Source: an archaeon (GTDB lineage Archaea > Altiarchaeota > Altiarchaeia > IMC4 > QMZM01). From it: a stretch of DNA of 14,176 nucleotides. The notes beneath the pieces are model-generated. The model worked only from the letters and a program-made list of their open reading frames with translations. It had not been told where the DNA came from and did not search any database. Both the position numbers and the translations under genes were made by a program. Where the stretch lies: assembly GCA_029933895.1 (NCBI GenBank), contig JAOZNG010000016.1, positions 1 to 14,176 on the forward strand, in the 5' to 3' direction. Position 1 is the stretch's first letter, and the number at the start of each line of letters is the position of its first letter. Shown in pieces: positions 2-14,176 of this stretch.

Positions 2-286
2 TTCCTTCTGGAAGAGACAGAGGAGGGAGTTTATTCTGGAGAGATCCCCGGGGAGGAATTTGAACAGGGAAAGACATACAGCTACCACTTCTCCGACAGG
101 GAGGGAGGAGAGGATATAGCTCCCCACCTCTCCTCATCAGTGAAACAGCCGGAGAGATGGGAGGGGGGTAAGGGTAAGGTTAATTCGCTGTATTTTTTGA
201 TAGTAATTGCTCTAATAATCATTCTGATACTTGTTGCTGTGAGAATAATCTATTTGAGGAAAGGAGGAAGAGTGGTGGAGGAGTAG
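2..286 (+). CDS. C-terminal end of a single-pass membrane-anchored surface protein (partial, 5' end outside window)
   Basis: An open frame runs from the window edge to TAG at 284-286, giving 94 residues. The first half (to about residue 50) looks like the end of a beta-sandwich extracytoplasmic domain, with the stretch VYSGEIPGEEF and a tyrosine/histidine-rich strand. A charged Gly/Ser-rich linker follows. Then comes one strongly hydrophobic segment of about 20 residues (LYFLIVIALIIILILVAV), followed by a basic tail RIIYLRKGGR and the end VVEE. By the positive-inside rule the tail is cytoplasmic, so the missing N-terminal part would lie outside the cell. Such C-terminally anchored proteins are common in archaea. 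The specific family cannot be named from this fragment. It is convergent with the helicase operon and probably unrelated to it. Confidence 0.75.
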   Translation, partial: FLLEETEEGVYSGEIPGEEFEQGKTYSYHFSDREGGEDIAPHLSSSVKQPERWEGGKGKVNSLYFLIVIALIIILILVAVRIIYLRKGGRVVEE

Positions 287-390: not shown

Positions 391-403
391 TGTTTATTTT
401 TCT
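391..403 (+). terminator. Possible T-rich archaeal terminator between convergent genes
   Basis: A T-rich run (tgtttatttttct) on the + strand lies about 105 nt after the stop of the left-edge membrane protein and overlaps the last codons of the helicase. Archaeal terminators are mostly plain oligo-T runs, so it could end the + strand transcript. There is no convincing hairpin; only a weak GCTC/GAGC pair at 331-346. No other gene is visible in 287-393. Confidence 0.25.
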
Positions 404-3400
404 AGAACTTTTCGTAGGGTTCTTGCTATCTCTGCAGAATGATTAAGAACCTTGTCTGTTGGGAATCTTAGCACGGTCCATCCTAATATGGCAAGTTCAT
501 TGGATATATCAATGAGTTTCTGAATCTGTGTGGGTTCTTTAAAATGGTATTGCACTCCGTCAACGAAAATGGCTATTTTTCTTTCTGGATATGCAAAATC
601 TGCATTTGCTACAATTCGTCCTTCTTTATCTTTGATAGGATGATGATGTTGTGTAGGTAAGGGAAGGTTGTGAGCCGAAAATATATTGTAAAAGGTCTTT
701 TCTAGAGGAGAGTCAAAATAGATCTGTTTCTCGTTTTTTACACCTTCCATAACCTCTCCGCATTCATTCATGACTTTTGAGAGAAAATCCTTGATTACCC
801 TTTTGTCCAAAAGGTGGTGGACTCTTTGATTGTAGTAATTTCTTAAGCATCTGTAGCAAGATCTCTGGCATTCGTGATTGTACAGGACCTCCTCTGCCTT
901 CTTTAAAATTGTACACCAGTGTGGCCCTAGCCTCTCAATGTAGCCTATTCCGCCAGGGATAGTTTCGTATAATATCAATTCGTAGGTTTCCTTTCCCTCC
1001 TTGTCTCTAACTATCCTAATGAACCCTCCAACCTCATCTGGAGAGGTTTCTAGGTGTATGTATATTCCTGTAAGGATTGTGTGGAGAAGCGTTGTCAGGA
1101 AAACCTCCACAAATCCGTCTCCATCGCTATTATCTACTGTAGCAGGAATAACCTGTGAAGGAACCGTTATAACAGCTACTGTGCTGGTTTTTATTGTGGA
1201 GAGTTCAGCATGGATAATGTCCTCATCTCTGGCGTCACAAAACTTCTTGTGGAAGTTCTCCCATCTCTCTTTATCTTCCTCTTGAGTCCATGATCCACAT
1301 TTTAGACAGATTCTAAAGCCATTCCCTCCCCTCCCTCTGTTTGTTATTAGAATCCTAGCATTCTTGTATTTTCTCAATATCACATTCCCTTTCAAGTAAA
1401 CCTCTTCAGATTTCTCTGCTTTGTCCTCTAACAGATACTGTGTCACGTCAAAAGAGGTGGATTTTCTGTATTCCTCCGTAGCGGTTACCCTTTCCACTCT
1501 CTCAGCTCTTACCATTCTCGGTTCAAAGCAGTGAATGGTGTTAGAAAGTTCCTGGCCACAATGGGGGCAGTACATCTCAGTAATGTTGGTGGTTGCATAA
1601 TCACAATGGAGACAGTGCTTGTAATGAATTCCAGAATGACCGTTGATGTAGTCTGCAGCATTTATCTCTTCAGTGACCACCACGTGTCTTGGGGTGTATT
1701 TCATCTGATCCACATAAATGTAATTTCCTGGAGCATATTCCCTGATAGCAAATTCAACATCCCTTACGATTGGCTCGGGAGTATCCGGTATGTTGAGGAC
1801 AGTCTGCACCCCCGGGAAGGCATATCCTGGAAGAAAACCAATCTTGGAGAGATAGGAATAGAGATATGCCACTTGGTGGTCTGATAGAAGCATATTACTC
1901 ACCTGGATAAGTTTGGTCATCTCTGCTATTTCCTTTTTTGATTTCATTGTGATTGACGTTAATTCATCAATTCTCCTCTGTATGTTTGTTAAAAGCTTCG
2001 TGAAAGGCTTGAGTGCGTCTTTCAGGTCGTCTACAAAATCGCTCATAATGCGATCTACATATTCATCAAAATCCCTATCTTTCAAGAAATCCAGGTGTTC
2101 TATGTCATCTTTGAAGACAGACCAGAGGGCCTTCCTTATCTTTATTCTCTTGTTATCAATGCTTTTTCGCAACTCACTCAGATCCTTAATTCGGTATTCA
2201 ACCCTCTCATGACTCCTGTCCTGTTCTACCAGCTCTCCTAAGAGGCTGGGCATTTTGTAATCTATCTTCTCAAGGATGAAGGAGCGAACATGCCTTCTTA
2301 GGATTCTTTCGTTGCTGAGGTTAAAGGCAGGGGGTACAATCTTTCCTGATATTATGTCAGACGGATTTCCATAGAAATAGGTGTCGTGTGGAGTAGCTCT
2401 AGTGTAGGCCACTGAAAGGGAAATTCCGGTCTTTCTACCAGACCTGCCAACGCGCTGGGCATAATTAGAGGGGGAGGGGGGTATATTCCTCAATAGTATG
2501 GTGGAGAGTTCTCCGATGTCTATCCCGAGTTCTAGCGTGGGTGTGCAGACCAACACGTTGAGATCTCCCCTTTTGAATTGCTCCTCATAGATCTCTCTCC
2601 TTTCAGTGGGTATCTGTCCGCTATGTTCAGCAACTTTTACCGGGACCGGTTCGTGTCTAGTGTAGTGGTAGACATAAAAATCTTCCAAATCAATATCTTT
2701 TTTCACAAGTCTTCCGTGGCAATTGTAGGATGTACACTGGTTGTCTATATTCACGGGATGTATCTTGGTACAGGAGTTACATACCCAGACCTCATCCGGG
2801 ACGGTAACCTCCATTCGCTTATGGTTGACGAGGTAGGCGTTGGTGGTGGAGCCTTTGGTGTTACCTATTTTCTCTCTGGTTATTAATCCCCCCTCCTCCA
2901 GAAGTTTGACTACGGCAGAAAGAAACTTTTGAGAGTCCTCAACTCCCAAGAGCCTTTTTGTCATCTGCTCAAAAAGGCAGTGTCCTCTAGATGTGAGAAA
3001 TGGATGAAGCTTATACCCTGCTGCGTCCTCTCCCCGGAAATCATAACCAGTGGGTTTCCAGAAAGGCCTCTTCACGATATCCAGCCGTTTTAGCTCGTAT
3101 GACGTGGGAAAGCGCTTGAAAAGTTCATGATTTATTGCGGCTTTATATCTCATTTCGTTGAGGAAAATTTTGAGGTACTTTAGGAGCTTTTCACCTTCTA
3201 TATCAAACTGTTCAATTATCTCGGTGAAGAGCGGCAGTTCTTTTAACTCCTCAAGGCCATGATACTCCACGGTTATCAGACCTAGGGACTCAAGGGTGTT
3301 TCTCAGGCGAGGTACCATCGTTAACTCCTCAAGGATTTTGTATGTTATTCCTTTTAGGAAATCCTCTGCCAGAGCGGTGCTCTCTGGTTCCTCAAAAAGC

Positions 3401-5409
3401 TGGATCTCCCTCCCCATGTCAAAAACCTCTTCCGCCAAATGTTCAACATCCAGAGGATATTTTCCTTCCTTTTTCCGCTTATTGGCAATGAAATAAATCA
3501 ACTGCCTGAGAGTGAATTTCACATGGCGGTCACCCATGTATCCAGCCTGGTGAGCGGAGTCCTGTCTGTTATCTGAAAATATCAAGAGTTTCCTCTCATC
3601 TTCTTCTAAGTTGGATAAAAGAGATGTGGCAATAACAGCAATGTCTGCGGCGATGCTGCTCCAGATTGGGGTAACGACCTCTCTATTCCCATATCTTCCC
3701 CGGCACACGGGGCACTCTGTGAGTTTTCCCTGAATGTAATGAAAGGGCATGAGCTTGGAACTGCAATTGGGGCACGTATCCGGGGATTCAAAACTTACAT
3801 AACCGCATTTAGGACACAAATAGAGCTTAGGGGGAGGCTCTTTTCCGTTGCTCTCATTCCCTGGAAAGAAAGACACCTCTTGCGTAAGATGATAGGTGTC
3901 CTCGCTAGAGTCAAAGGCCTCATAAGACCTCAAATAATTCCCCTCTACACTCCGTTCTAGAATGGAACGGAGATAATCCTTACCGCAGTGCCGGCAGACT
4001 TCAAGGGGGAAAGTGAGGGAACCGCATTTGGGGCATCGCTCTACGCCGGAAGGGTAAACCTCGCCACACTTCAGACACCTAACAAGACCGTGAAGGCCTC
4101 TCAGGAAAAGGTGTATCCTGGGCCTGAATTTTCTCCTGCCCCCTTTCCTCGCAGCCATCCCCACTATTAGATACGCCACCACTTCTCTCACGACCTCCTC
4201 CAGAGGAACCGTTGCCCTCTCCCGGATGCTCTCCCTTAATTTCTTGGCTATATCTGATAATGAAAGGATGTCCTCCGTAAGGAGACTCTCTATGGCGTGT
4301 GAAATGGTACAGGAGGTCAACTCATCGTACAGGGATTCAAATACGTTCCCTCCCAGTTTTCTCCTAAGGAGTTTTTCTGCGAGTCTTCGGACATCCTCTG
4401 GATTGTTTGGATCAATGTTCAGATCTTCTTCGGAGAGGTTAGGGGGCGGCGGGGTGTAAAAAACGTCAGAAAGCTGGGGTGGAACATGCTTCTCAAAAAT
4501 GATAGAATCGTCTGAGAAAGGCGCTCCAAAGAAGCTTTTTGCAAACATGACCACTTCCTTTTTCTCTTCTTCTCCACCCACCACAGTGGCACTTGTGCCG
4601 ATATGAACCACACCCCTCTTCTCAAGCCTCTCCTCGAGAGAGTGTTCTTTCACTCTCCTCAATAGCATGGCAATTTCTGCCCCTCTTGCGCCGGAATAGG
4701 TATGTACCTCATCCATTACGATGAACCGAAGGTTCCTGTGCCTGAATATGGTTTTGTCTTCTTTTCTTATCATAAGAAACTCCAGCATGGCATAGTTCGT
4801 TATGAGTATGTCCGGAGGACTCTTTTGAATCTCTTCCCTAGTAGCTCTTTCATTAGGAAGAGCGTCATGGGGCCTGTTTTCTGCAGTAGAAGGCGTGGCA
4901 GATGTGTAAATTCCAAATGAGATGCTGGTGCCTTTTAAAAGTGTTTTAAGTCTGGCATATTGGTCATTTGCCAGTGCGTTCATGGGGTACACCACAATGG
5001 CCTTCACCCCCTCCTCGTCGGGATGGGTGATACAGTAATCAATTATAGGAATTAAGAAAGCTTCAGTCTTTCCACTTCCCGTTCCTGTAGCGATTATCAC
5101 ATTCTCTCCGTTTTGTATCCTTTCTATGGCCTCCTGTTGATGTCTATACAATCTGCTAATTCTGCCCTTCTCTGTGAAAAGCCTAGCAGTCTCTTTACTG
5201 ATCAATCCTCTCTCTGCTATCTTCTGAAGAGTGTAGCCTGGCATATAATTTCTGTCAAGCGAAATGTAAATCTCCTTCCATATCAGTTTCTCGTCACGCA
5301 CTTTTCTCCGGACTGCCTCCTTCAGTGTCTCGTCTAGAATGGGAAATGTGGTGTAAATGTACATTTCAAATTCTTTCAAAAGCTCTTTTTGGATTTGGAA
5401 AGGTTTCAT
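394..5409 (-). CDS. Large DEAD/DEAH (COG1205-type) helicase with zinc ribbons, DUF1998/MZB cluster and C-terminal Vsr-like nuclease
   Basis: 1671 aa. Helicase motifs are intact: Q-like motif near residue 91, Walker A ATGTGSGKT (107-115), DEVH (233-236), SAT (273-275), motif IV LLIFSDNRQDS (608-618), motif V TPTLELGIDIG (956-966) and QRVGRSGR (985-992). Three zinc ribbons lie between the two RecA lobes (CxxC pairs at 445, 459, 472, 532, 546 and 566). More Cys pairs occur near 877-897, 1266-1284 and 1368. A DUF1998/MZB cluster follows (C1499, C1514, C1518, C1521). Residues 1563-1671 resemble a Vsr/DUF559 endonuclease, with E1570 in SPLEKTF, D1604 in ADFAYPE, VDG at 1616-1618, H1622, and the LGWTVLRF strand. 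The start ATG has GAGGG 7 nt upstream, and the gene begins 12 nt after the 138-aa gene. It resembles Druantia DruE and MrfA-class helicases. As a defence effector it would translocate on DNA and cut it; that role is inferred. Confidence 0.9.
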   Translation of the reverse strand: MKPFQIQKELLKEFEMYIYTTFPILDETLKEAVRRKVRDEKLIWKEIYISLDRNYMPGYTLQKIAERGLISKETARLFTEKGRISRLYRHQQEAIERIQNGENVIIATGTGSGKTEAFLIPIIDYCITHPDEEGVKAIVVYPMNALANDQYARLKTLLKGTSISFGIYTSATPSTAENRPHDALPNERATREEIQKSPPDILITNYAMLEFLMIRKEDKTIFRHRNLRFIVMDEVHTYSGARGAEIAMLLRRVKEHSLEERLEKRGVVHIGTSATVVGGEEEKKEVVMFAKSFFGAPFSDDSIIFEKHVPPQLSDVFYTPPPPNLSEEDLNIDPNNPEDVRRLAEKLLRRKLGGNVFESLYDELTSCTISHAIESLLTEDILSLSDIAKKLRESIRERATVPLEEVVREVVAYLIVGMAARKGGRRKFRPRIHLFLRGLHGLVRCLKCGEVYPSGVERCPKCGSLTFPLEVCRHCGKDYLRSILERSVEGNYLRSYEAFDSSEDTYHLTQEVSFFPGNESNGKEPPPKLYLCPKCGYVSFESPDTCPNCSSKLMPFHYIQGKLTECPVCRGRYGNREVVTPIWSSIAADIAVIATSLLSNLEEDERKLLIFSDNRQDSAHQAGYMGDRHVKFTLRQLIYFIANKRKKEGKYPLDVEHLAEEVFDMGREIQLFEEPESTALAEDFLKGITYKILEELTMVPRLRNTLESLGLITVEYHGLEELKELPLFTEIIEQFDIEGEKLLKYLKIFLNEMRYKAAINHELFKRFPTSYELKRLDIVKRPFWKPTGYDFRGEDAAGYKLHPFLTSRGHCLFEQMTKRLLGVEDSQKFLSAVVKLLEEGGLITREKIGNTKGSTTNAYLVNHKRMEVTVPDEVWVCNSCTKIHPVNIDNQCTSYNCHGRLVKKDIDLEDFYVYHYTRHEPVPVKVAEHSGQIPTERREIYEEQFKRGDLNVLVCTPTLELGIDIGELSTILLRNIPPSPSNYAQRVGRSGRKTGISLSVAYTRATPHDTYFYGNPSDIISGKIVPPAFNLSNERILRRHVRSFILEKIDYKMPSLLGELVEQDRSHERVEYRIKDLSELRKSIDNKRIKIRKALWSVFKDDIEHLDFLKDRDFDEYVDRIMSDFVDDLKDALKPFTKLLTNIQRRIDELTSITMKSKKEIAEMTKLIQVSNMLLSDHQVAYLYSYLSKIGFLPGYAFPGVQTVLNIPDTPEPIVRDVEFAIREYAPGNYIYVDQMKYTPRHVVVTEEINAADYINGHSGIHYKHCLHCDYATTNITEMYCPHCGQELSNTIHCFEPRMVRAERVERVTATEEYRKSTSFDVTQYLLEDKAEKSEEVYLKGNVILRKYKNARILITNRGRGGNGFRICLKCGSWTQEEDKERWENFHKKFCDARDEDIIHAELSTIKTSTVAVITVPSQVIPATVDNSDGDGFVEVFLTTLLHTILTGIYIHLETSPDEVGGFIRIVRDKEGKETYELILYETIPGGIGYIERLGPHWCTILKKAEEVLYNHECQRSCYRCLRNYYNQRVHHLLDKRVIKDFLSKVMNECGEVMEGVKNEKQIYFDSPLEKTFYNIFSAHNLPLPTQHHHPIKDKEGRIVANADFAYPERKIAIFVDGVQYHFKEPTQIQKLIDISNELAILGWTVLRFPTDKVLNHSAEIARTLRKVLEK

Positions 5410-5416
5410 ATATATG

Positions 5417-5421
5417 CCCTC
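5417..5421 (-). promoter_or_regulatory. Ribosome binding site of the DUF1998 helicase
   Basis: On the - strand GAGGG lies 7 nt before the ATG at 5409 and directly after the TAA of the upstream 138-aa gene. It supports this start and suggests coupled translation. It is weaker than the GGAGGT sites of the other operon genes. Confidence 0.55.
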
Positions 5422-5838
5422 TTACAACCTGAGCTCCCCCTTTATCCTCAAGTAGTTGCCTGGACCTGTAACACTGAAGCCAACGGTAAGTATGTCCTTC
5501 AGCGGCTCCTCTATGCTTTTGCCGTCTTCTATCCTTCTGGCAAGTTCTTTCAGGCTGTTGCATAGGATGTCAAAATGCTTTTCAGTGATCTCAACGGTAC
5601 CCTCTCCCGATCTTATTCTGTTCAGCCGATCCAGGAGGAGGTTATATGTGGTCTGAAGGACAAAATCCGCAAGGAGTATGTCCTTGGAGAAGGCGTATCG
5701 CATGCTCCTGCCAGTTATGCCATAGGCTGCAGAGAAAAAGTATATCTTCTTCTCAATGTCAGACTCCTCTCTAACGTACCTTTCCACGCGCCTCAACTCG
5801 GCAACCAACTCTTTTTTAAAGAACTCTTCACGCTGCAT
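5422..5838 (-). CDS. 138-aa predicted all-helical protein of unknown function, partner of the upstream winged-helix regulator
   Basis: The frame is open up to 5913, but the supported start is the ATG at 5838 (MQREEFFKKEL): AAAGGAGGT lies exactly 7 nt upstream. A closer in-frame ATG two codons earlier is almost on top of that site, and the longer N-terminus would lie inside the preceding gene. The product is mostly charged helices; its most distinctive stretch is KKIYFFSAAYGITGRSMRYAF (residues about 30-50). The C-terminus is probably beta-rich (VGFSVTGPGNYLRIKGELRL). No Rx4-6H motif of HEPN RNases, no nucleotidyltransferase motif and no other catalytic signature is visible. It overlaps the regulator gene by 11 nt and is followed 12 nt later by the helicase, so it is very likely co-translated with both. 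A cofactor of the regulator or a subunit of the defence complex are both possible. I do not recognise the family. Confidence 0.8.
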   Translation of the reverse strand: MQREEFFKKELVAELRRVERYVREESDIEKKIYFFSAAYGITGRSMRYAFSKDILLADFVLQTTYNLLLDRLNRIRSGEGTVEITEKHFDILCNSLKELARRIEDGKSIEEPLKDILTVGFSVTGPGNYLRIKGELRL

Positions 5839-6328
5839 TACCATAACCTCCTTTTGCACAGGGGTCAAGATGAGCAGTGGCAACATCCACGGAAATGGGG
5901 AACTTGTCCTCATCCTCTAAGTCCTTTAAGGGGCCTGGAATAAGACCCTCATCTCCGTCTACCGGGTGGGGCTTCATCTCTGTAGTTGCTCTCTCAATGA
6001 ACTTCCTGTTCCAGTGCTGTTCTACCTTTTCCATGACCTCTGGGCCTACCATCTTTGCGATGAGCAGGTTGTTCAGCTCATTGAGAACCTGGACAAAGGG
6101 GGAACGAACGTTGATCTCATAATAGGCTGTTCCCCCCCTCCTTCGGGTGACCTTCACCAATCCGTACTCTAAGAATTTCTTTATCGCCTTCTGCACTGTG
6201 GGTCGGGAGACCCCAACCTCTTCCGCCAGTTCGCTTATGTTGAAGTCCAGTCCCTCCAGTGGGAGGAGAAACTCCAGAATCCTCAGCTCACAGGTGTTAC
6301 CTAAAATGCCCTCAAAGGGCTTCCTCAT
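5828..6328 (-). CDS. Winged helix-turn-helix transcriptional regulator (166 aa), likely autoregulator of the helicase module
   Basis: Residues about 10-75 form a clear winged helix: a first helix (CELRILEFLLPLEG), then ISELAEEVGVSRPTVQKAIKKF as the helix-turn-helix, then LEYGLVKVTRRRGG and a wing ending in YYEIN. The following SPFVQVLNELNNLLIAKMVG helix resembles the dimerisation helix of many archaeal wHTH regulators. The C-terminal ~60 residues are acidic and proline-rich with no recognised domain. The ATG at 6328 has GGAGGT 7 nt upstream. The gene is first in the second transcription unit, behind a TATA element flanked by two inverted repeats that would suit binding by a dimer of this protein. 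The last codons (KGGYGNAA) contain the ribosome binding site of the next gene. Repressor activity is inferred from layout. Confidence 0.85.
   Translation of the reverse strand: MRKPFEGILGNTCELRILEFLLPLEGLDFNISELAEEVGVSRPTVQKAIKKFLEYGLVKVTRRRGGTAYYEINVRSPFVQVLNELNNLLIAKMVGPEVMEKVEQHWNRKFIERATTEMKPHPVDGDEGLIPGPLKDLEDEDKFPISVDVATAHLDPCAKGGYGNAA
5846..5854 (-). promoter_or_regulatory. Ribosome binding site that decides the start of the 138-aa gene
   Basis: AAAGGAGGT on the - strand ends 7 nt before the ATG at 5838. It lies inside the 166-aa regulator gene, where it encodes Lys-Gly-Gly. The spacing favours the ATG at 5838 over the in-frame ATG at 5844, which almost touches the site. Confidence 0.75.
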
Positions 6329-6335
6329 AATCTCA

Positions 6336-6341
6336 ACCTCC
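6336..6341 (-). promoter_or_regulatory. Ribosome binding site of the 166-aa regulator
   Basis: GGAGGT on the - strand, 7 nt before the ATG at 6328. With the TATA element near 6405 it implies a leader of about 50 nt, unlike the first gene of the other module, which looks leaderless. Confidence 0.7.
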
Positions 6342-6381
6342 GGCTAAACACTCCAAGCCTTCTGCATGTTCCCTGCGCCAC

Positions 6382-6400
6382 CTCTCTATATGATAGGGAG
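6382..6400. promoter_or_regulatory. Imperfect inverted repeat at the transcription start region (candidate operator)
   Basis: Two 8-bp arms, CTCTCTAT (6382-6389) and ATAGGGAG (6393-6400), are reverse complements with one mismatch across a 3-nt spacer. The repeat starts directly downstream of the TATA element on the - strand and covers the expected initiation zone about 25 nt from it. A bound dimer would block initiation. No sequence match to a known operator is claimed. Confidence 0.5.
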
Positions 6401-6410
6401 ATATATAATA
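6401..6410 (-). promoter_or_regulatory. TATA box of the regulator/helicase transcription unit
   Basis: On the - strand this reads TATTATATAT, preceded by AAAAG, which could serve as the purine-rich BRE. It lies in the 108-nt gap between the 100-aa and 166-aa genes, about 75 nt before the 166-aa start. Initiation is expected around 6375-6382. Promoter assignment rests on archaeal consensus; the organism being archaeal is itself inferred. Confidence 0.6.
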
Positions 6411-6430
6411 CTTTTGACACAGGTGTAAAA
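6411..6430. promoter_or_regulatory. Inverted repeat upstream of the TATA box (candidate operator)
   Basis: The core ACAC-AG-GTGT (6417-6426) is a perfect 4+4 dyad with a 2-nt spacer. It is flanked by TTTTG on one side and AAAA on the other, so symmetry extends over about 19 nt with one extra G. It abuts the TATA/BRE region on the upstream side. It is well placed for the winged-helix dimer encoded just downstream. It could instead contribute to termination of the preceding transcript, but it lacks a following T-run of convincing length. Confidence 0.5.
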
Positions 6431-6436
6431 TAGTGT

Positions 6437-6739
6437 TTACAGTGAGTGGATTCGGCCCTTTGGAACACTCACCCCACACTCACCCAAATCAATCAGGGTC
6501 TTCGCCTCATCTGCCACATAGTACTTCTCTGGGCTCTTCCCAACCCTTGATATGTACCCTTTATTCATAAGGTTCTGAAGGCACCTGTCAAATTTCATGT
6601 GTCCACGTCTCTTTGGGAACTTCCTCAGGTAACGGTTCCGTAGCTTCTCGCTGTGATAGCCTCGGTCTCTACCGAAACATCTGTTTTTTACCAAGATCTT
6701 CAGAATGAACGTCTCCTCCTCGGAAAGTGGGCAGACCAT
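6437..6739 (-). CDS. Small winged-helix-like protein (100 aa), last gene of the SNF2-methyltransferase unit
   Basis: The ATG at 6739 has GGGAGGT 5 nt upstream, inside the last codons of the methyltransferase, and only 3 nt separate the genes. The product starts PLSEEETFILKILVKNRCFG, has a very basic middle (HSEKLRNRYLRKFPKRRGH, residues about 29-47), then CLQNLMNKGYISRVGKSPEKY (about 53-73), which has the look of a recognition helix followed by a wing. A short tail (LIDLGECGVSVPKGRIHSL) completes it. The pattern fits a small winged-helix nucleic-acid-binding protein. No catalytic motif is visible. It may regulate the operon or help the methyltransferase bind DNA, much as small accessory proteins do in other defence operons; neither role is shown by the sequence. 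Confidence 0.75.
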   Translation of the reverse strand: MVCPLSEEETFILKILVKNRCFGRDRGYHSEKLRNRYLRKFPKRRGHMKFDRCLQNLMNKGYISRVGKSPEKYYVADEAKTLIDLGECGVSVPKGRIHSL

Positions 6740-6742
6740 TAT

Positions 6743-9700
6743 TTACCTCCCAGAGTGTACCTTCTTGTAAGGTCCTAATTCAATGTATTCTGGATTCAAT
6801 CTTTTAATCTGGCTTATAATCCCAGCAAACCGCTCATACTCCTCCAGACACATCCTCTTGGTGCGGTACTCTCCAAATGCCGCAATCTCCTTCTTTCTCA
6901 GCACGGGGAAGGTGTCCAGAATGTAGGCAAACTCGTCCCTTGTCAGCCCATAGAGGTGGGCAACGAGAGCATCAATTTCCGCCCGCAACTGCGCCCTGTC
7001 GCCATCGTCCCTCTTCTCGCCGTTGTTTTCAATCCAGCCGTAGGCCCCGCACTCAGTGGTCCACTTCTCGCTCAGGTTCTCCCATCCCCCTACCCTGGAT
7101 GTCCTCGCGATCTCCCGCCACTCCGGCCTGAAGGTCTCCTCCCAAAGTTCCGCAAACTCTTCATCAATACAAATCAACCTCGCAGCCCTAGGAACTATCT
7201 GGTCAAAAAACCAGTTGCCTGAGGTGAGGCGGGGGATTGGCAAGGCGTTTAACATAAAACGACCAACAGATGTGGTAGCTCTGGGTCTCAAAATATGGTC
7301 TATGCAAATGGAGTTTAAAATGGCAGTTAGGAGAATTTTCTCCTTATTCTTGATGTTTGACTTATATTCAAACGAGAGTGGCAATTTATGATTTGCATAT
7401 ACATTTTTAAAGACCATTGAAACAATAAGAGTTCGCTCATTAGTATTCGAGGCAATTTCTCTATATCCCATCCTATAGAAACCTTCATTGGTAAGGCCAT
7501 GCAGATGAATTTCCCCTTTAGCTCCCTTGAGTTTTTCATCACCAGACTCTTTATTTATCCAATACTTCGGCTTATCGTAAAACGCGTCAAACTGCCAAAT
7601 CATTTTCCCCTCGTACAGCGGCAGGTATGTGCCCTTTTTCAATTCTCTCCCGTCCACCACCGTGTCTTTTTCCAGAACCCAGCGCAACTCCCTCTTATCC
7701 AGGGGCTTCGCCCCTGCCGCCAGTAGCTCCCTGCGGGTAATGAAGAGATGGGCATCTGAGGTCATATTGAACTCCTGTGTAAACTTCACATTCCATGCCC
7801 CCTCTATCTCCTCGCCCAGAAGTGGCCAGTCGTCGTATATTTTCTCCGCAAGGTCAATGTCCTCCTGCCTCTTGAACTCCATTATGCTCAGCGTGTCTGG
7901 CGAGAACCGCTCTATTAACTTCCGTGATATTTTCAGCCCATCTTCCAAAACCAGAGGTAATAAATTCTCCAGCTCCTCGGCCTTCGGTGCAAAGCTCCCC
8001 GCGAGAATCTCCCGCGCATCCAGAATCGCTTTTTTCTTCTCCTTTGGTCTAGAGCCTACAAAGAATCCTGCTCGGAATTTATAATCTTTTCCCTGAGAAC
8101 TCTTCAGCGTGGAGAAGAGCGAGTACTTAAACCGGATATCTATTGCTGGGAATATCTTTTCTCTATTCTCTACACCTATCAGGAAACTTATCTTTGACCG
8201 TTCCAGAAACATCCTTCTCAGTTCCTTGCAACCCTCATCGGTGTAGAGCCCGGAGGGCACGATTATGGACATCCTTCCCCCCTCCCTGATAACCCAGAAG
8301 AAACGTTCTAAAAACATGTTATAAAGATCTAATTTTCCTAACAAATGCGGATAAAAATTGGATGTTCTAAAGAAGAAACTTTCATTTTTGACTCTTGTCA
8401 CATAATCTTTCCACTGTTTTCTGATTACAGAGTTGGAATCTAATATTTTCTCCATAACTTTTACTTTTTCTTTTCGTTTATAACTTCTGAACCTGGGCTC
8501 GTAGTTACTAAAGAACTCATCAGATTCTGGTTGAAGGGTATTCCACGGGGGATTCCCTACAGCTGCGTCAAAGCCACCGTTCTCAAAGACCTCTGGGAAC
8601 TCAAGTTCCCAGTGGAAGAAGTGGTACTTATCACGTAGTTGCTGAACTCTTTCCATTATACTCTTTTCCCTATCACTCATCTCTTTGTCATTGATGATCT
8701 TATCCACCAGCAGGGTGTATTCTAGGGGATCTGGGAGGTCCCCCCATTCCCAGAACCATAATGCAGTCCAGAGGTCGTAAATCTTCTTTAATTTTTCATA
8801 TCTCCTACCTTCCTCTATCTCACCATCAACAAATCTTCGCCATTTATCCTCTTTTACTCTTATGTCTTCTATCTCCTCCTCTGGGGTCATCAGACCTTCT
8901 CTATACTTAACCAGGTCTTTAATTGTTGAAAGAAGGGGATTCGCCAACATATCAACGCCGGGAACACTGAAGAATACAAGTTTATCATGCATTTTCTTTG
9001 AAAGGTCCTTTATGCTATCCAGCCTCTTCTTAAGGGCGGGATTTTTCTTTGCTCTTTCCTTCAGGCTGGGTATGTTCACCACATCCTTTGGATATTCAAT
9101 GATTCTCTCCTTCGTTGTTCCTATCAAACTGTTTCCAGGTCTCAGCTTGTGGTCCAGAAATGTGAGAGGTTTGTTCTTCTCCATGGCAGTTAGCCAGAGG
9201 GAGACCTTCGCCAGGTCAACGGCAAGGGGATTCAGGTCCACACCGTAAATGCAGTTTTCAAGTACCCTTCGTCTTGCAACTCTCCTCCCCTTCTCCACAT
9301 CCATGTCTAAAAACCATCTCTCCTCCCTTCTGAGTTCCTCAATCTCCTCTTCAGATAACTCTTTCTTCTTCTCTTCGTTTTCCTTCACCATCGCATAATA
9401 ATACGCATCTCCCAAGAAATTGACGGCAGCCACCAGAAAGGCACCGCTTCCCATTGCAGGATCTACAACCTTTATGTCCAGTATTTCATCCGGAGACTTA
9501 TCCTTTACCTGTTCTTCAAGGGCACTTTTCACAAGGAATTCGGTAATCTGTTTTGGTGTGTAATAGGTGCCAGTGCTCTTCCTTGTTCCGCCCCAAGAGG
9601 ACAAATAAGCTTCACCTTTTGGAATAATCCTAATGGGCTGGGTGGTCTGGTCCAGCTGGCTGTACGGTATAAAGATCTCTTCGTTTCCTTTTCTCACAAC

Positions 9701-10936
9701 TGCTATATCCTCCTCTGCCACTTTGGGTTCCAACTCTAGAAGGGATTCGTATATTGCCCCTATCTGGGATATGCCCATCTCACGGAAGGATACCCTATCT
9801 CTGGTTTTCCCCCGCCGCGGCCGGGTCAGTGCGATGTCTTTTATTATCTCTGCCATGATGCTATCAGGTATCTTTGTTTTGGATAGATATTGTGTCTGTC
9901 TGGGATCAAATAGTCCGCCATTGTAAGGTTCAATCTTGAGGTGAGTGGTGTCAACTCCTCTGTTTATGCACCTGAAGGTGGCATCTAGTGTATCCCATAT
10001 GAAATATCTGTCATCACCCGCCCTAAGGCTGCCTGTCAGAATGAATTCTCTGAGAGCCGTCACACTGTACCCGAGTCTGTATATCTCGTTGTCTACAGGC
10101 AAGAGCTCTGTACTCTCTGCATAGAAGAGGAAAAGCAGTCTGAACATGTATATGAGGGTCTCCTCAAACAACTTTTTTAGATCCACATTGGGATTTCTTC
10201 TGTACGCCTCCCGGAGGAGTCTTTCAACTGCGGCATAAACCGAGACCTGTAGGTCTTTACCCACGCTTGCAGCTTCTTCTTTACACCTCTCTTCAATGGT
10301 CTCAAGAATACTTCTTTCCTGAGTAATGGGGAGCAGAGATCTTCTGTGAAAGAGGAGGGTGAAGAGGTGGAAAACCTCCCGATTCCCATCCTCCCAAGCT
10401 CTGCGGAGATTGATGTCCAGGTATGCATTTCCAAGGGCTTCGTTCTTCACAAGCCTGAAAATTCGCCCATTGGTGAGGACCCCCCACCGCACCCCTGTGC
10501 TGAATAGTGCCAATTTGAGCTTTTTATACGCCCTTGCTCTTCCGCTATCCAGGTCTTCTTCAAAGGGTAGGAAGTAAAATAGGAGAAGCCTTTTCCCATC
10601 CTCAATGTAGTGATAAAAGTCAGTGTCTATAACTTCATCTTTGTCGTTCAGGACGGGCATGCGGGAGAGTTTTTCATATCCCAGCCACCCCAAAATCCTC
10701 CTGACCAGGATTCTGTATACCTCCCTCGAGCTGCTCTCACTCCCCAGACGTTCTATACCTCTTCTATAATCCCTCCATATCTCGCCTGTGGCTCTTTCCA
10801 GCTCACTTCTTATTCTGCCTATCTCCCGGTTAATCTTTCGGTCCTGAAACACTGTGCTCAAAAAATACTCTGAAAGAAATCCCCCGCTGTTGACGATATA
10901 ACGGGTTACGCCAATTCCTCCACCAGTCCTTTTCAT
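6743..10936 (-). CDS. Large Eco57I-type N6-adenine DNA methyltransferase, DrmMI-like (1397 aa)
   Basis: The catalytic core is clear: YTPKQITEFL (about 459-468, motif X region), DPAMGSGAF (492-500, SAM binding), YGVDLNPLAVDLAKVSLWL (564-582) and the catalytic NPPW (795-798). This NPPW/NPPY form belongs to gamma-class adenine N6 methyltransferases. Residues 65-190 resemble the nuclease-like N-terminal domain of type IIG/DISARM enzymes (GVLTNGRIFRL at 152-162), but the expected E-x-K is absent: after DTDFY (104-108) the strand reads LLLFYFLPF. FLFYAESTELLP (269-280) and the C-terminal EIDALVAHLYGLTRDEFAYIL (about 1320-1340) are typical of large DISARM-type methyltransferases. Residues ~900-1250 probably hold target recognition. 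It overlaps the SNF2 gene by ATGA and has AAAGGAGGT 5 nt upstream. It likely marks host DNA for protection. Two regions are unusually AT-rich. Confidence 0.92.
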   Translation of the reverse strand: MKRTGGGIGVTRYIVNSGGFLSEYFLSTVFQDRKINREIGRIRSELERATGEIWRDYRRGIERLGSESSSREVYRILVRRILGWLGYEKLSRMPVLNDKDEVIDTDFYHYIEDGKRLLLFYFLPFEEDLDSGRARAYKKLKLALFSTGVRWGVLTNGRIFRLVKNEALGNAYLDINLRRAWEDGNREVFHLFTLLFHRRSLLPITQERSILETIEERCKEEAASVGKDLQVSVYAAVERLLREAYRRNPNVDLKKLFEETLIYMFRLLFLFYAESTELLPVDNEIYRLGYSVTALREFILTGSLRAGDDRYFIWDTLDATFRCINRGVDTTHLKIEPYNGGLFDPRQTQYLSKTKIPDSIMAEIIKDIALTRPRRGKTRDRVSFREMGISQIGAIYESLLELEPKVAEEDIAVVRKGNEEIFIPYSQLDQTTQPIRIIPKGEAYLSSWGGTRKSTGTYYTPKQITEFLVKSALEEQVKDKSPDEILDIKVVDPAMGSGAFLVAAVNFLGDAYYYAMVKENEEKKKELSEEEIEELRREERWFLDMDVEKGRRVARRRVLENCIYGVDLNPLAVDLAKVSLWLTAMEKNKPLTFLDHKLRPGNSLIGTTKERIIEYPKDVVNIPSLKERAKKNPALKKRLDSIKDLSKKMHDKLVFFSVPGVDMLANPLLSTIKDLVKYREGLMTPEEEIEDIRVKEDKWRRFVDGEIEEGRRYEKLKKIYDLWTALWFWEWGDLPDPLEYTLLVDKIINDKEMSDREKSIMERVQQLRDKYHFFHWELEFPEVFENGGFDAAVGNPPWNTLQPESDEFFSNYEPRFRSYKRKEKVKVMEKILDSNSVIRKQWKDYVTRVKNESFFFRTSNFYPHLLGKLDLYNMFLERFFWVIREGGRMSIIVPSGLYTDEGCKELRRMFLERSKISFLIGVENREKIFPAIDIRFKYSLFSTLKSSQGKDYKFRAGFFVGSRPKEKKKAILDAREILAGSFAPKAEELENLLPLVLEDGLKISRKLIERFSPDTLSIMEFKRQEDIDLAEKIYDDWPLLGEEIEGAWNVKFTQEFNMTSDAHLFITRRELLAAGAKPLDKRELRWVLEKDTVVDGRELKKGTYLPLYEGKMIWQFDAFYDKPKYWINKESGDEKLKGAKGEIHLHGLTNEGFYRMGYREIASNTNERTLIVSMVFKNVYANHKLPLSFEYKSNIKNKEKILLTAILNSICIDHILRPRATTSVGRFMLNALPIPRLTSGNWFFDQIVPRAARLICIDEEFAELWEETFRPEWREIARTSRVGGWENLSEKWTTECGAYGWIENNGEKRDDGDRAQLRAEIDALVAHLYGLTRDEFAYILDTFPVLRKKEIAAFGEYRTKRMCLEEYERFAGIISQIKRLNPEYIELGPYKKVHSGR

Positions 10937-13878
10937 GGGGAACCTCCTTTGATTATCAGTGCGCTCAAAATTCTTCTCTCCCCAATGCTCACCTTCTTCT
11001 TTTCATCAAGTTCTTCCAGTTTCTCCGTCTTTAACATCTCTAGCCTATAAATTCTGCTTTTTAGCCGTTCAATATCCTTTTTGAGTCTCCTCTCCTCTTC
11101 AGAAAGGCTCTGTACATCATGGGAGAGGTATAGCGTTGCCTGTTTGACAAGGTTTTTTTCCAACCGTTTAACCTGCCTCTGCAGATTTGAAATCTCCTCG
11201 GTGTAATAGTTCATCACAATTTCATGATGGATTTGAAGTCTTTTCTCTATCTCGTCACTTAGGGCCGCTCTTCTCCTCTCAGCCAGTTCTCTGCATATAT
11301 CCTCCGCCCGGGACAGCAGATCGTCCCATTTATCAGACACAGCCTTTAGGAACTCTGGGGGCAGATTTTCTTTCAGTGGCTTTGATTCCAACAGCGAATT
11401 ATCCCACGGGATTTCCCTTCCGTCCAACCCGACCCTGACCGGCAGAACATCTTCCATCGCCAGTCTTCCGGATCCGTCAACATACTTTACGTAGAAATAA
11501 TACACGACAGAATCCTTCTCCCCGGGGAGAGTGATGTAACTTATGCGGTTCTCATGATCTGTAGAATAGAGCTGTTTCCTATAGTGCCAGAGAATCTTTT
11601 TTATTAATGGGTGAGAGAGGGTGATATACTCTATCTCAGGGTTAGCCAGAGCGTACTCACGATCAAAAGTGACGTTTAAAGTCTGGTCCCCATCAGCGAA
11701 TATCTCGGGGAGGAAAAGGCGAAGGGTCGAACCACCCGTCTCTTCATACTTTCCGCCGTTTTGAATCACGGCCTGTTTAACAAAATTCTCCAGCATCCTG
11801 TTATGTCTAAAGGATTTTTCAAGTCTCTTAACAACCTCGGTGAGCCCCTCCTGTGGAGAGGTTGTGATGTCATCATAGAACTTGGACATCTTGACAAGGG
11901 ATTCCTTCTCCCAGTCCATGAAGAACTTCTCCAGCGTGGCGAGGTTCCTCTCATCTCTGTCCATCAGGTTATTCACGATGACCTCTGTATCAAACAATCC
12001 CAGAACGTCAATGGCGCTTCCGATCCTATTCATTATGTTTTCAATCTTCTCCACAAGAAGTTTGAGAATGTTACCCTCATAAGTATCCGTTAGGAAGAGG
12101 TTTTTTACTATCACATCCCTTCTCTGTCCATATCTGTCAACTCTTCCTATCCTCTGGAGGAGTCTGTTAGGGTTCCAAGGAAGCTCGTAGTTTATTACGA
12201 TATGACACTTCTCCTGAAAGTTTATCCCCTCACTGGCAGCATCTGTCGCTACCATTATCCATTTCTCGTCGGAAAGAAAGTCCTTTTCAGCTTTACTTCT
12301 CTCAGCCTTTGATAACTGGCCATGGATGATAACTATCCTATTTTCATATCCATTGTTTTCAAGGAACTTTACCAGGAAGTCCTGGGTATCTCTGTATTCA
12401 GTGAAGATTATGACCTTATTCTCCCCTTTCTGTACCCCCAGCTCTTTAAGGAGTTCCAGTAACTTGCGGCTTTTAACATCACCACGTCTTACATGGTCCA
12501 GATCCTTGATATCAAGTTCATCCAGATTCTTCAGGATGGCATCTATTTCTTTAAGCTCCACTTCTAGATCGCTTTTATCCCTCGCAAGGGTGGTGTGGAG
12601 GATGGTTCTTTCAAGGTTCTCCTTTTGTCTTTCAGTTAAAGAAATGTCCTCAAAATACCTCCTTTTCTTGTCAATGTCTAGTGTAAATTGCTCCTCCTTA
12701 AGGTCGCTGCGTTCTTCTAGATATTCTTGGAACCGCATTCTTCTCGTTAGAAGGGACTTTTTTAGGGAATAGAAACTGCTGAGAAGGCGCTTCTTGAGTA
12801 TAACCATTGCAAAGGCAGCAGTATTGTTCTCCACCGCCTTTGCCTGCTGCCATAATTTATCCGTGTATTCTATTACCTTGTTGTAGATACGTTTCTCACT
12901 CTCGTCATCTAGAGATACACCGACGGTTTCTATGCTTGGGGGTCTGTATCCAGACATGATGTCCATCTTCAGCCTTCTCACGAAATACTTCTGTACTAGG
13001 CTTCTCTTCTGGAATTCTTTTGGGGTTATGTGGGGATTCAGGAGTTTTAAGAGGCTTATAAAGGACTCATCTCTTCCGTTGTGAGGTGTGGCCGTGAGAA
13101 GTATTAGGGAGTCAGTTCTTTGAGATATAAACTCCCCAAACCTTGCCCGATCAGTCTTCCTGAAGACATAGCTCAGGTAATGTGCCTCATCTATTATCAC
13201 AACATCCCAGTAAACATCTAGAAGCTGTCTTCTGATCTCTGGCCGTTTTACGTAGTCAATGGATGTTATAATACGGTTATACCTTTCCCAGGGGTTTTCC
13301 CCGGTTACCATGTCCCTTAGGATTTCTTTAAGGGTGTCGGAATCAAAGATGGTGAAATCCAGATAGAACCTCCTTTCCATTTCATCTCTCCACTGTTCCT
13401 GGAGGGAGGCTGGAACCACTATGAGAACCCTGTTGGCCATGTTCCTGGACAGAAGCTCCTGCAGAAGAAGTCCAGCCTCTATGGTTTTTCCGACACCGAC
13501 ATCATCAGCGATGAGTATTCTTGGAGGAACAACACTCATCGCCTTCAGAAGTGGAACAAACTGATAATCCTCTATGCGGATTCTGGAGTTGGGAACAGAG
13601 GTGAATATATTTTTGGGTTTGTGTAGCATGAAAGTTACAGCATCCATAAAGGTTTTCCAACTGGAGTATCTTCGCATGTTTCTCCCGAGTTTCAAGGTGT
13701 TAACCTCAATTACCTCAGGGAGCTCAGTATCCGAAGAGGAAAGGAGACGGATTTTGAGGCCCCTGTTATATTCCTCTGCTCCAGTGAGAGTGAGTACGTA
13801 AAACCTGCCGAGATCTCTTACACCAGTTACTTTCCAGAGAAGGGATCGAACCCTTATATACTGCCCCTCTGCGTACAT
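10933..13878 (-). CDS. SNF2-family DNA helicase/translocase, DrmD-like (981 aa)
   Basis: Motifs, numbered from the ATG: Walker A DDVGVGKTIEAGLLL (about 125-139), IVVPASLQEQW (Ia), DEAH (230-233), TATPHNG (262-268), VIIFTEYRDT (489-498), ATDAASEGINF (544-554) and QRIGRVDRYGQ (575-585). These are SNF2/RapA-like rather than DEAD-box. The C-terminus (about 855-970) is a long, highly charged helical region likely to form coiled coils, useful for contacts with partners. Size and motif style match class 1 DISARM DrmD. I chose the ATG at 13878; an in-frame TTG sits immediately before it, and there is no Shine-Dalgarno, which fits leaderless transcription from the TATA element at 13900-13909. The gene is first in its operon and ends in an ATGA overlap with the methyltransferase. 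It probably moves along DNA for the system. Confidence 0.9.
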   Translation of the reverse strand: MYAEGQYIRVRSLLWKVTGVRDLGRFYVLTLTGAEEYNRGLKIRLLSSSDTELPEVIEVNTLKLGRNMRRYSSWKTFMDAVTFMLHKPKNIFTSVPNSRIRIEDYQFVPLLKAMSVVPPRILIADDVGVGKTIEAGLLLQELLSRNMANRVLIVVPASLQEQWRDEMERRFYLDFTIFDSDTLKEILRDMVTGENPWERYNRIITSIDYVKRPEIRRQLLDVYWDVVIIDEAHYLSYVFRKTDRARFGEFISQRTDSLILLTATPHNGRDESFISLLKLLNPHITPKEFQKRSLVQKYFVRRLKMDIMSGYRPPSIETVGVSLDDESEKRIYNKVIEYTDKLWQQAKAVENNTAAFAMVILKKRLLSSFYSLKKSLLTRRMRFQEYLEERSDLKEEQFTLDIDKKRRYFEDISLTERQKENLERTILHTTLARDKSDLEVELKEIDAILKNLDELDIKDLDHVRRGDVKSRKLLELLKELGVQKGENKVIIFTEYRDTQDFLVKFLENNGYENRIVIIHGQLSKAERSKAEKDFLSDEKWIMVATDAASEGINFQEKCHIVINYELPWNPNRLLQRIGRVDRYGQRRDVIVKNLFLTDTYEGNILKLLVEKIENIMNRIGSAIDVLGLFDTEVIVNNLMDRDERNLATLEKFFMDWEKESLVKMSKFYDDITTSPQEGLTEVVKRLEKSFRHNRMLENFVKQAVIQNGGKYEETGGSTLRLFLPEIFADGDQTLNVTFDREYALANPEIEYITLSHPLIKKILWHYRKQLYSTDHENRISYITLPGEKDSVVYYFYVKYVDGSGRLAMEDVLPVRVGLDGREIPWDNSLLESKPLKENLPPEFLKAVSDKWDDLLSRAEDICRELAERRRAALSDEIEKRLQIHHEIVMNYYTEEISNLQRQVKRLEKNLVKQATLYLSHDVQSLSEEERRLKKDIERLKSRIYRLEMLKTEKLEELDEKKKVSIGERRILSALIIKGGSP
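10942..10950 (-). promoter_or_regulatory. Ribosome binding site of the methyltransferase
   Basis: AAAGGAGGT on the - strand lies 5 nt before the ATG at 10936 and within the end of the SNF2 gene, where it encodes Lys-Gly-Gly. Together with the ATGA overlap it indicates coupled translation. Confidence 0.75.
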
Positions 13879-13899
13879 CAAGATTGCATGAGAACAAGG

Positions 13900-14069: not shown

Positions 14070-14176
14070 TTAATCTACCTTCATTTTCCTCTTCACATAT
14101 TCCAGCAGCCCCCCTGCATTTAGGATTTCCATCACGTATGGGGGGAAGGGGGAGAAGGTCACCTCAAAGTTCTTTG
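14070..14176 (-). CDS. leuD: 3-isopropylmalate dehydratase small subunit, C-terminal fragment (5' end outside window)
   Basis: The frame reads in from the right edge and ends in TAA at 14070-14072. The 34 visible residues include FSPFPPYVMEILNAGGLLEY, the conserved end of the LeuD/aconitase small-subunit (swivel) domain, followed by a lysine-rich tail. LeuD pairs with LeuC to isomerise 2-isopropylmalate to 3-isopropylmalate in leucine synthesis, in the cytoplasm. In archaea the closely related homoaconitase small subunit (HacB) acts in 2-oxosuberate or lysine pathways and cannot be told apart on this fragment. It points the same way as the defence operon, 191 nt upstream, but belongs to core metabolism and marks the edge of the accessory region. 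Confidence 0.82.
   Translation of the reverse strand, partial: KNFEVTFSPFPPYVMEILNAGGLLEYVKRKMKVD

What the first reader, a model, noticed from the sequence alone, without database searches (positions are those of the whole stretch)
394..13878. DISARM/Druantia-like hybrid defence locus: SNF2 + Eco57I methyltransferase + one helicase-DUF1998-nuclease protein
A DrmD-like SNF2 helicase and a DrmMI-like methyltransferase are in the order of class 1 DISARM. Separate DrmA, DrmB (DUF1998) and DrmC (PLD) genes are missing. A single 1671-aa protein holds a helicase core, a DUF1998/MZB cysteine cluster and a nuclease domain, as in Druantia DruE or COG1205 helicases. Three small proteins of regulator-like type are woven in. 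The combination does not match any system layout I know exactly. Motifs are seen directly; the class signatures are known; the defence role is inferred.
Basis: partly seen in the sequence, partly recalled or inferred. Interest (0 to 1): 0.75.

Follow-up and report, generated by a model that had tools for sequence, protein, structure and literature searches.

The report
Archaeal ARMADA defence operon with regulators
This stretch of archaeal DNA carries a recently named anti-virus defence system (ARMADA Type I), and wedged inside it is a three-gene cassette that some other archaea carry on its own, in places beside other defence genes, and that may control the system.

Summary
The genes are real and as described. 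The "hybrid" layout has a name: it matches ARMADA Type I (Bell et al., bioRxiv, Sept 2025, PMC12458937): ArmA SNF2/BrxHII-like helicase, ArmB PglX-like methylase, ArmC YprA-type helicase with DUF1998 zinc domain and a C-terminal Vsr-like nuclease, in the A-B-C order that paper reports for many archaea. A tree puts the window's ArmC inside ARMADA, apart from Druantia, and outside the ArmD-bearing Type II clade. The same three genes recur in 22 of 80 fetched loci from bacteria and archaea. It is neither DISARM nor Druantia.

The three small genes are the new part. They form a portable archaeal cassette (100 aa, 166 aa winged-helix, 138 aa helical). All three, in the same order, stand without ArmB or a full ArmC at 13 of 15 methanogen places examined, in some cases near CRISPR, BREX or restriction genes. 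I think the cassette is a transcriptional controller placed just upstream of the nuclease gene (about 50%); no experiment supports this. The slot between armB and armC holds other genes in other ARMADA loci.

The parts
10933..13878 (-). armA: BrxHII/RapA-like SNF2 helicase, about 981 aa (TTG start at 13881 also possible)
   Evidence: Pfam SNF2-rel_dom 5.5e-22 and Helicase_C; PADLOC DrmD 443 bits, BrxHII 408 bits; NCBIfam DrmD equivalog 482 bits against a cut-off of 610; motifs intact
6743..10936 (-). armB: PglX/DrmMI-like N6-adenine methylase, 1397 aa
   Evidence: Pfam Eco57I 1e-24; PADLOC DrmMI 392 bits; DPAMGSGAF and NPPW motifs; overlaps armA by 4 nt
6437..6739 (-). cassette gene 1, 100 aa, possibly wHTH-like (weak TrmB similarity only)
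   Evidence: Pfam TrmB E 0.0085, below cut-off; homologues in the same order at methanogen loci
6329..6436 (-). 108-nt spacer with a TATA-like box at 6407, possible internal promoter for cassette genes 2-3 and armC
   Evidence: spacer of 92-267 nt at 12 of 13 methanogen loci with all three genes, 1290 nt with an extra ORF in the other
6424..6441 (.). 18-bp dyad TGTAAA-N6-TTTACA overlapping the stop of cassette gene 1, operator candidate
   Evidence: same place in L169, L170 and, with one change in an arm, L171; the window's dyad alone is not significant (70 of 200 shuffles as good)
5828..6328 (-). cassette gene 2, 166 aa winged-helix protein
   Evidence: HTH_28, HTH_11 and MarR_2 over their cut-offs; wHTH relatives in 21 of 101 genomes searched, own included
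   Evidence: 113 homologues, no Pfam, NCBIfam or PHROG match; model pLDDT 91.6
394..5409 (-). armC: YprA-family helicase with DUF1998/MZB and Vsr-like nuclease, 1671 aa
   Evidence: Pfam DEAD, Helicase_C, MZB; PADLOC DruE1 570 bits; tree
844..1086 (-). MZB (DUF1998) zinc domain of armC; the only one found in the host genome (75% complete)
394..762 (-). Vsr-like nuclease domain of armC
   Evidence: D55, D68, G69, H73 and G94 of the piece invariant in 13 aligned rows, several of them cut short at the N-terminus; fold match to I-Bth0305I
14070..14174 (-). flank: tail of an isopropylmalate-isomerase-like small subunit gene (not part of the system)
   Evidence: weak; no Pfam match
2..286 (+). flank: convergent gene tail (not part of the system)
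   Evidence: no Pfam match

Best explanation
The locus is an ARMADA Type I antiviral operon of an archaeon. ArmB most likely methylates host DNA as a self mark. ArmA (SNF2 translocase) and ArmC (helicase with DUF1998 clamp and Vsr-like nuclease) most likely load on and cut unmarked or abnormal invading DNA, stopping infection directly rather than by suicide. Shown here: gene content, intact motifs, nuclease fold match, recurrence and tree position. Inferred from the tested E. coli Type II system and from YprA-family enzymes: methylation as self mark, loading and cutting, non-abortive action. A portable three-gene archaeal cassette sits between armB and armC. Its most likely role (about 50%, inferred only, not included in the confidence below) is to control, from a promoter in the 108-nt spacer, expression of the nuclease gene armC apart from the methylase.
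For: Core: all three ARMADA genes in the archaeal A-B-C order of PMC12458937. In a tree of 50 rows the ARMADA rows split from Druantia-like rows with support 98; seven ArmD-bearing Type II rows form one clade (100); the window lies on the Type I side (89), in a 5-row clade (100) with the Thermococcus-type rows as sister (99). No ArmD-like gene is in the window; for the reference loci see the Against line. Nuclease. Recurrence: 22 of 80 loci have ArmA- and ArmB-like genes on the strand of ArmC. Cassette: complete and in order at 13 of 15 methanogen places; the 138-aa protein is on contigs whose lengths match those of the five nearest ArmC relatives. Controller idea: winged-helix protein, conserved spacer, armC 12 nt downstream, and HTH plus M78 peptidase genes in the same slot of other ARMADA loci; bacterial CapH+CapP controllers are a helix-turn-helix protein and a peptidase (PMC13373217 passages; that CapP is of the M78 kind is recalled).
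Against: No Type I ARMADA was tested in the paper parts read; the tested one is Type II, which needs ArmD, absent here. ArmD is not a perfect marker: on the Type I side L038 (Thermaceae) has an ArmD-like gene after ArmC and L097 has one 3 kb before ArmC on the other strand. Support for the Type I branch is 89, from a quick search without bootstrap; an earlier 63-row tree left the ARMADA branches unresolved. BRIGADE and TALON sequences were not in the tree. In methanogens the cassette has no fixed downstream gene, so a controller role there is unexplained. The dyad is not significant in the window alone.
Confidence: 0.85

Rival explanations
1. A DISARM class 1 variant in which drmA, drmB and drmC have fused into one gene.
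For: Best PADLOC hits of the SNF2 and methylase proteins are DrmD (443 bits) and DrmMI (392 bits).
Against: NCBIfam DrmD equivalog cut-off 610 is not reached (482 bits); ArmC scores 570 bits with DruE1 against 63 with DrmA; nuclease is Vsr-like, not PLD; the host genome, 75% complete, shows no second DUF1998 gene.
Confidence: 0.03
2. A Druantia variant that has picked up a methylase and SNF2 gene.
For: DruE1 is the best PADLOC hit of ArmC (570 bits); the best PDB hit 9tu7 is a 2108-aa DEAD/DEAH helicase which I take to be DruE.
Against: ArmC lies outside the Druantia-like clade (98 on both sides); no gene that looks like a Druantia partner was recognised in the window; methylase and SNF2 genes go with ArmC relatives in many phyla.
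Confidence: 0.02
3. The three-gene cassette is an independent element (toxin-antitoxin, its own small defence, or mobile passenger) that landed in a permissive slot and does not control ARMADA.
For: It stands alone in methanogens; 10 of the 14 genomes with the 138-aa gene have no ArmC-like match at 1e-30; the slot holds unrelated cargo elsewhere: Abi_2, DUF2887, viperin.
Confidence: 0.4
4. Chance neighbourhood of a type IIG restriction enzyme, a RapA-like helicase and a repair helicase.
For: Methylase also matches REase_MTase_IIG models (318 bits).
Against: The three large genes recur together in 22 of 80 loci, and armA and armB overlap here.
Confidence: 0.02

Closest known systems
ARMADA Type I (Bell et al. 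2025, PMC12458937)
   Same: ArmA, ArmB and ArmC homologues; ArmC with DUF1998 and fused C-terminal Vsr-type nuclease; A-B-C order described for many archaea and cyanobacteria; no ArmD
   Different: Three-gene cassette between armB and armC, not mentioned in the parts of the paper read; its supplementary tables could not be read
ARMADA Type II (E. coli)
   Same: A-B-C order and homologous core
   Different: No ArmD (GajB-like helicase with RelE domain); ArmC in a separate clade
DISARM class 1
   Same: DrmD-like and DrmMI-like genes side by side
   Different: No separate DrmA, DrmB or PLD DrmC on the contig; DrmD cut-off not met
Druantia (DruE)
   Same: Best PADLOC score of the helicase (DruE1, 570 bits)
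   Different: Different clade; no recognised partner gene; Vsr-like rather than the PLD nuclease of Type III
Cap controllers (CapH+CapP, CapW/BrxR, CapK+CapS; PMC13373217)
   Same: Small regulators beside more than one kind of immune operon, as the cassette appears to be
   Different: No sequence relation shown; cassette lies inside, not upstream of, the operon; no experiment

Membership tests
[quoted passage not shown]
   (gene spacing and strand; no transcript data)
ARMADA Type I | YprA homologue falls in the ARMADA clade, apart from Druantia | tested here: met
   support 98; BRIGADE and TALON not included
ARMADA Type I | Falls outside the Type II clade and lacks ArmD | tested here: met
   tree; no ArmD in the window; only 393 nt of contig remain past armC, and a convergent gene tail lies there
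ARMADA Type I | C-terminal active Vsr-type nuclease | tested here: met
   fold and conserved residues; activity itself not testable here
ARMADA Type I | BrxA-like, MarR-like and zinc inserts in ArmC | tested here: inconclusive
   11 CxxC pairs seen; full protein too long to model (1671 aa)
ARMADA Type I | Antiviral activity | not testable with these tools
   needs experiment
DISARM class 1 | DrmD above the curated equivalog cut-off | tested here: not met
   482 against 610 bits
DISARM class 1 | Separate DrmA, DrmB and PLD DrmC | tested here: not met
   none on the contig; no second DUF1998 gene in the genome, 75% complete; PLD genes elsewhere in the genome not sought
Druantia | DruE in the Druantia clade | tested here: not met
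Druantia | Partner genes DruH, DruA-D or DruM-F-G (names partly recalled) | tested here: inconclusive
   none recognised among the window's genes, but lists for the three large proteins were cut at 25 families and no partner was sought by name
BRIGADE / TALON | 7-deazaguanine genes, or TPR-CSD and TBP genes | tested here: not met
   no such Pfam match in the six genes of the contig
Cap controllers | HTH plus peptidase, WYL, or STAS/GHKL domains | tested here: not met
   166-aa protein has only winged-helix or HTH matches, the 138-aa protein no match, the 100-aa protein a weak TrmB match

The most novel reading that the evidence does not exclude
The 100-166-138 aa cassette is an unrecognised, portable archaeal controller of defence loci, an archaeal counterpart of the bacterial Cap regulators. 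It is recruited beside CRISPR, BREX and restriction loci in methanogens and into the armB-armC slot of ARMADA, where it times or triggers the nuclease-helicase separately from the methylase. The slot itself would be a general docking place for such controllers (HTH-peptidase, Csa3, archaeal cassette).
Probability: 0.4. Interest if true: 0.65.

Novelty: new variant of a known kind. Interest (0 to 1): 0.42.

Why it matters
The system core was named only in 2025 and, in the text I read, only Type II was tested; archaeal Type I members with full gene sets are starting points for testing Type I. [quoted passage not shown] The 138-aa family (113 homologues found, no match in the family libraries searched) is a clean unknown to work on.

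Tried and rejected

Defence neighbours of the cassette were compared with control regions from the same genomes. At 1e-20, 117 PADLOC families matched among 93 neighbour proteins and 42 among 115 control proteins; only the first 25 of each list were shown. By inspection 5 of 14 cassette loci (L158-L171) lie near defence-type genes: L161 Mrr and GmrSD, L162 Schlafen-type and SNF2 helicases with Fic, L163 HsdM, L165 PglZ and BrxL, L164 CRISPR. Only ten hand-picked neighbour proteins were scanned singly and only L164 was searched for repeats, so this count leans towards what caught my eye. The control tally shows at least one type I methylase. It is not broken down by locus, many test hits are several GajB models on the same few proteins, and no statistic was computed. 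The association is suggestive only.

The 138-aa gene was sought elsewhere: 2 of 101 genomes (own and one weak hit at E 0.003), 0 of 6 genomes of archaeal ArmC loci, 14 of 344 in the phylum of Methanocrinis, 1 of 29 in the own phylum, the window itself, 0 of 115 in the Thermococcus phylum.

Paper searches: answered; three later ARMADA searches timed out. That the cassette is not described rests on the answered searches and on the parts of PMC12458937 read (parts 1-4 of 8, figure legends, one term search). Of PMC13192584, PMC12839542, PMC13373217 and PMC4158269 I saw passages only; of PMC13316683 only the listing.
Full report
What is there. The window is one complete contig (14,176 bases) of an archaeal draft genome of 1.44 Mb in 264 contigs, 75% complete. 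The host is archaeal by its TFIIB genes (of the 14 control genomes only four archaea ring). Six genes run on the minus strand. The SNF2 and methylase genes overlap by 4 nt, the methylase and the 100-aa gene are 3 nt apart, the 166-aa and 138-aa genes overlap by 11 nt, and the 138-aa gene ends 12 nt before the 1671-aa gene. The only wide spacer is the 108 nt between the 100-aa and 166-aa genes. Upstream lies the tail of an isopropylmalate-isomerase-like small subunit (weak hit, E 0.002; no Pfam match); downstream is a convergent gene tail. No drm gene adjoins the system on this contig, and the genome shows only one DUF1998 domain, the window's own, with the caveat that about a quarter of the genome is missing.

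What the core is. NCBIfam's DrmD equivalog cut-off of 610 is missed at 482. The combination is the one named ARMADA in PMC12458937 (I read parts 1-4 of 8 of the text, the figure legends and one term search): YprA homologue plus BrxHII-like helicase plus PglX-like methylase. Type I occurs in archaea, where the helicase-methylase pair often precedes the YprA gene, and the YprA protein ends in a Vsr-type nuclease. The window fits each of these. The nuclease was checked by a model of the last 122 residues (pLDDT 87.5); its best PDB matches are the I-Bth0305I catalytic domain and NGO0050 (E 2e-3 and 1e-2, probability 1.00). That I-Bth0305I is Vsr-like is recalled.

Tree. In 50 ArmC and DruE rows over 615 core columns (quick search, mixture model, SH-aLRT only), 7 Druantia-like rows and 43 ARMADA rows separate (98). 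The 7 rows with an adjacent ArmD (E. coli and IMG/VR) are one clade (100). The other 36 are the Type I side (89) and hold both C-A-B and A-B-C loci. The window, P0002, P0003, P0005 and P0006 form a clade (100), with Thermococcus sp. JdFR-02 and P0007 as sister (99). An earlier quick tree of 63 rows left the ARMADA branches unresolved and gave 85 for ARMADA as a whole; there the window and P0002-P0006 form a six-row clade (100). The Druantia reference from E. coli is a long branch in both. ArmD is not a perfect marker: L038 and L097, on the Type I side, have an ArmD-like gene nearby, in L097 on the other strand.

Recurrence. Of these 80, 22 carry ArmA-like and ArmB-like genes on the strand of ArmC: 14 in order A-B-C, 1 B-A-C, 7 C-A-B (counted by hand from its table). 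Of the other 58, some are cut by contig ends and many show no ArmA or ArmB match. In the own lineage the system is rare: of 101 genomes, 3 match the methylase at 1e-20, own included, and apart from the window only one shows a match over nearly the whole ArmC, without an ArmB match beside it.

The slot between armB and armC. I looked at 23 loci in which armB is followed by armC: 18 (in four of them ArmA was not found or is cut off), 3 plasmids, one methanogen and the window. The slot holds genes in 12, none in 10, and one has a 729-nt gap without a listed gene. Contents with family support: HTH plus M78 peptidase (L031, L073), Abi_2 (L034) and DUF2887 (L107); viperin, TPR and Csa3/CARF genes (L194, the first two on the other strand). 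L025 and L026 resemble L031 by eye. Thermococcus L019, sister to the window's branch, has two proteins of 301 and 325 aa without a Pfam or PADLOC match.

The cassette. The 138-aa protein has 113 homologues at E 0.01, mostly 138-142 aa, none with a Pfam domain, several named as from methanogens. Contig lengths tie it to ArmC relatives P0002-P0006: 23088, 50076, 9120, 20687 and 10536 in both tables. These contigs were not read, and the other two cassette genes were not sought there. In a draw of 344 genomes from the phylum of Methanocrinis, 14 have it, at 15 places. At 13 of the 15, all three genes stand in the window's order on one strand; at one (L159) only a 43-aa piece of the first gene was found; at one (L172, a 4.5-kb contig) only the 138-aa gene. 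The spacer between genes 1 and 2 is 92-267 nt at 12 of those 13 loci and 1290 nt with an extra ORF at L163; genes 2 and 3 overlap by a base or lie up to 15 nt apart. In the stretches fetched (mostly 20 kb) none of the 15 shows ArmB or a full ArmC; two have weak helicase matches, L159 to ArmC (64 bits) and L162 to ArmA (51 bits). Of the 14 genomes, 4 have any ArmC-like match at 1e-30 and one (G180) a match over nearly the whole length, 0.48 and 0.61 Mb from its two cassettes. Neighbours at five loci are defence-type genes, most strikingly L164, where a CRISPR array of about 91 repeats begins about 25 nt after the 138-aa gene. The control comparison is only suggestive (see Tried and rejected).

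How it may work. Tested in E. coli Type II (PMC12458937): all four genes, the Walker A motif of each helicase and the methylase NPPW motif are needed, and protection is direct, not suicidal. The window keeps the corresponding motifs of ArmA, ArmB and ArmC but has no ArmD. DruE, a relative, loads on 3' single strands and cuts long DNA (PMC13192584, passages). I infer that ArmB marks host DNA and that ArmA and ArmC attack unmarked or structurally abnormal DNA. For the cassette the evidence is anatomy only: a winged-helix protein, a TATA-like box and a dyad in the spacer, and armC close downstream. The dyad stands at the same place in the window and three methanogens but is not significant in the window by itself (70 of 200 shuffles). 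Bacteria place DNA-damage-responsive controllers beside BREX, CBASS and DISARM operons (PMC13373217, passages), and HTH-peptidase genes lie in the same ARMADA slot, so a controller is my first choice, at about even odds with an independent passenger.

Verdict. Core: already named, high confidence. Embedded cassette: a new variant of a known kind, worth a follow-up.

Noticed in passing
L164:9562-17000 (G246): CRISPR array of about 91 repeats starts about 25 nt after the stop of the 138-aa cassette gene.
   Followed up: partly
L194:1-16564 (G180): Methanogen ARMADA with viperin (pVip), TPR and Csa3/CARF-type genes lying between armB and armC.
   Followed up: partly
L125, L126, L127, L128, L130, L135: 6 of 18 IMG/VR contigs with an ArmC relative carry an ArmD-like gene beside it: ARMADA Type II on contigs called viral.
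   Followed up: no
L025, L026, L031 (armB-armC slot): A repeated set of an HTH-M78 peptidase protein (Pfam-checked in L031 only) plus a 166-169 aa protein between armB and armC in Gammaproteobacteria, Rhodocyclales and Gemmatimonadetes drafts.
   Followed up: partly
L104 and L109 (NZ_CP026578.2): E. coli plasmid carrying annotated Zorya II, a gene pair that I read as Druantia III, and ARMADA II in a row.
   Followed up: no
L163:10939-11889: An extra ORF (transposase-like by eye) separates the first cassette gene from the other two.
   Followed up: no
L038:6793-8709 and L097:2801-5116: Loci on the Type I side of the tree with an ArmD-like gene: after ArmC in Thermaceae L038 (305 bits), before ArmC on the other strand in L097 (389 bits).
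   Followed up: no
L019:7496-9888: Thermococcus ARMADA, sister branch of the window, has two unassigned proteins (301 and 325 aa) in the slot instead of the cassette.
   Followed up: partly
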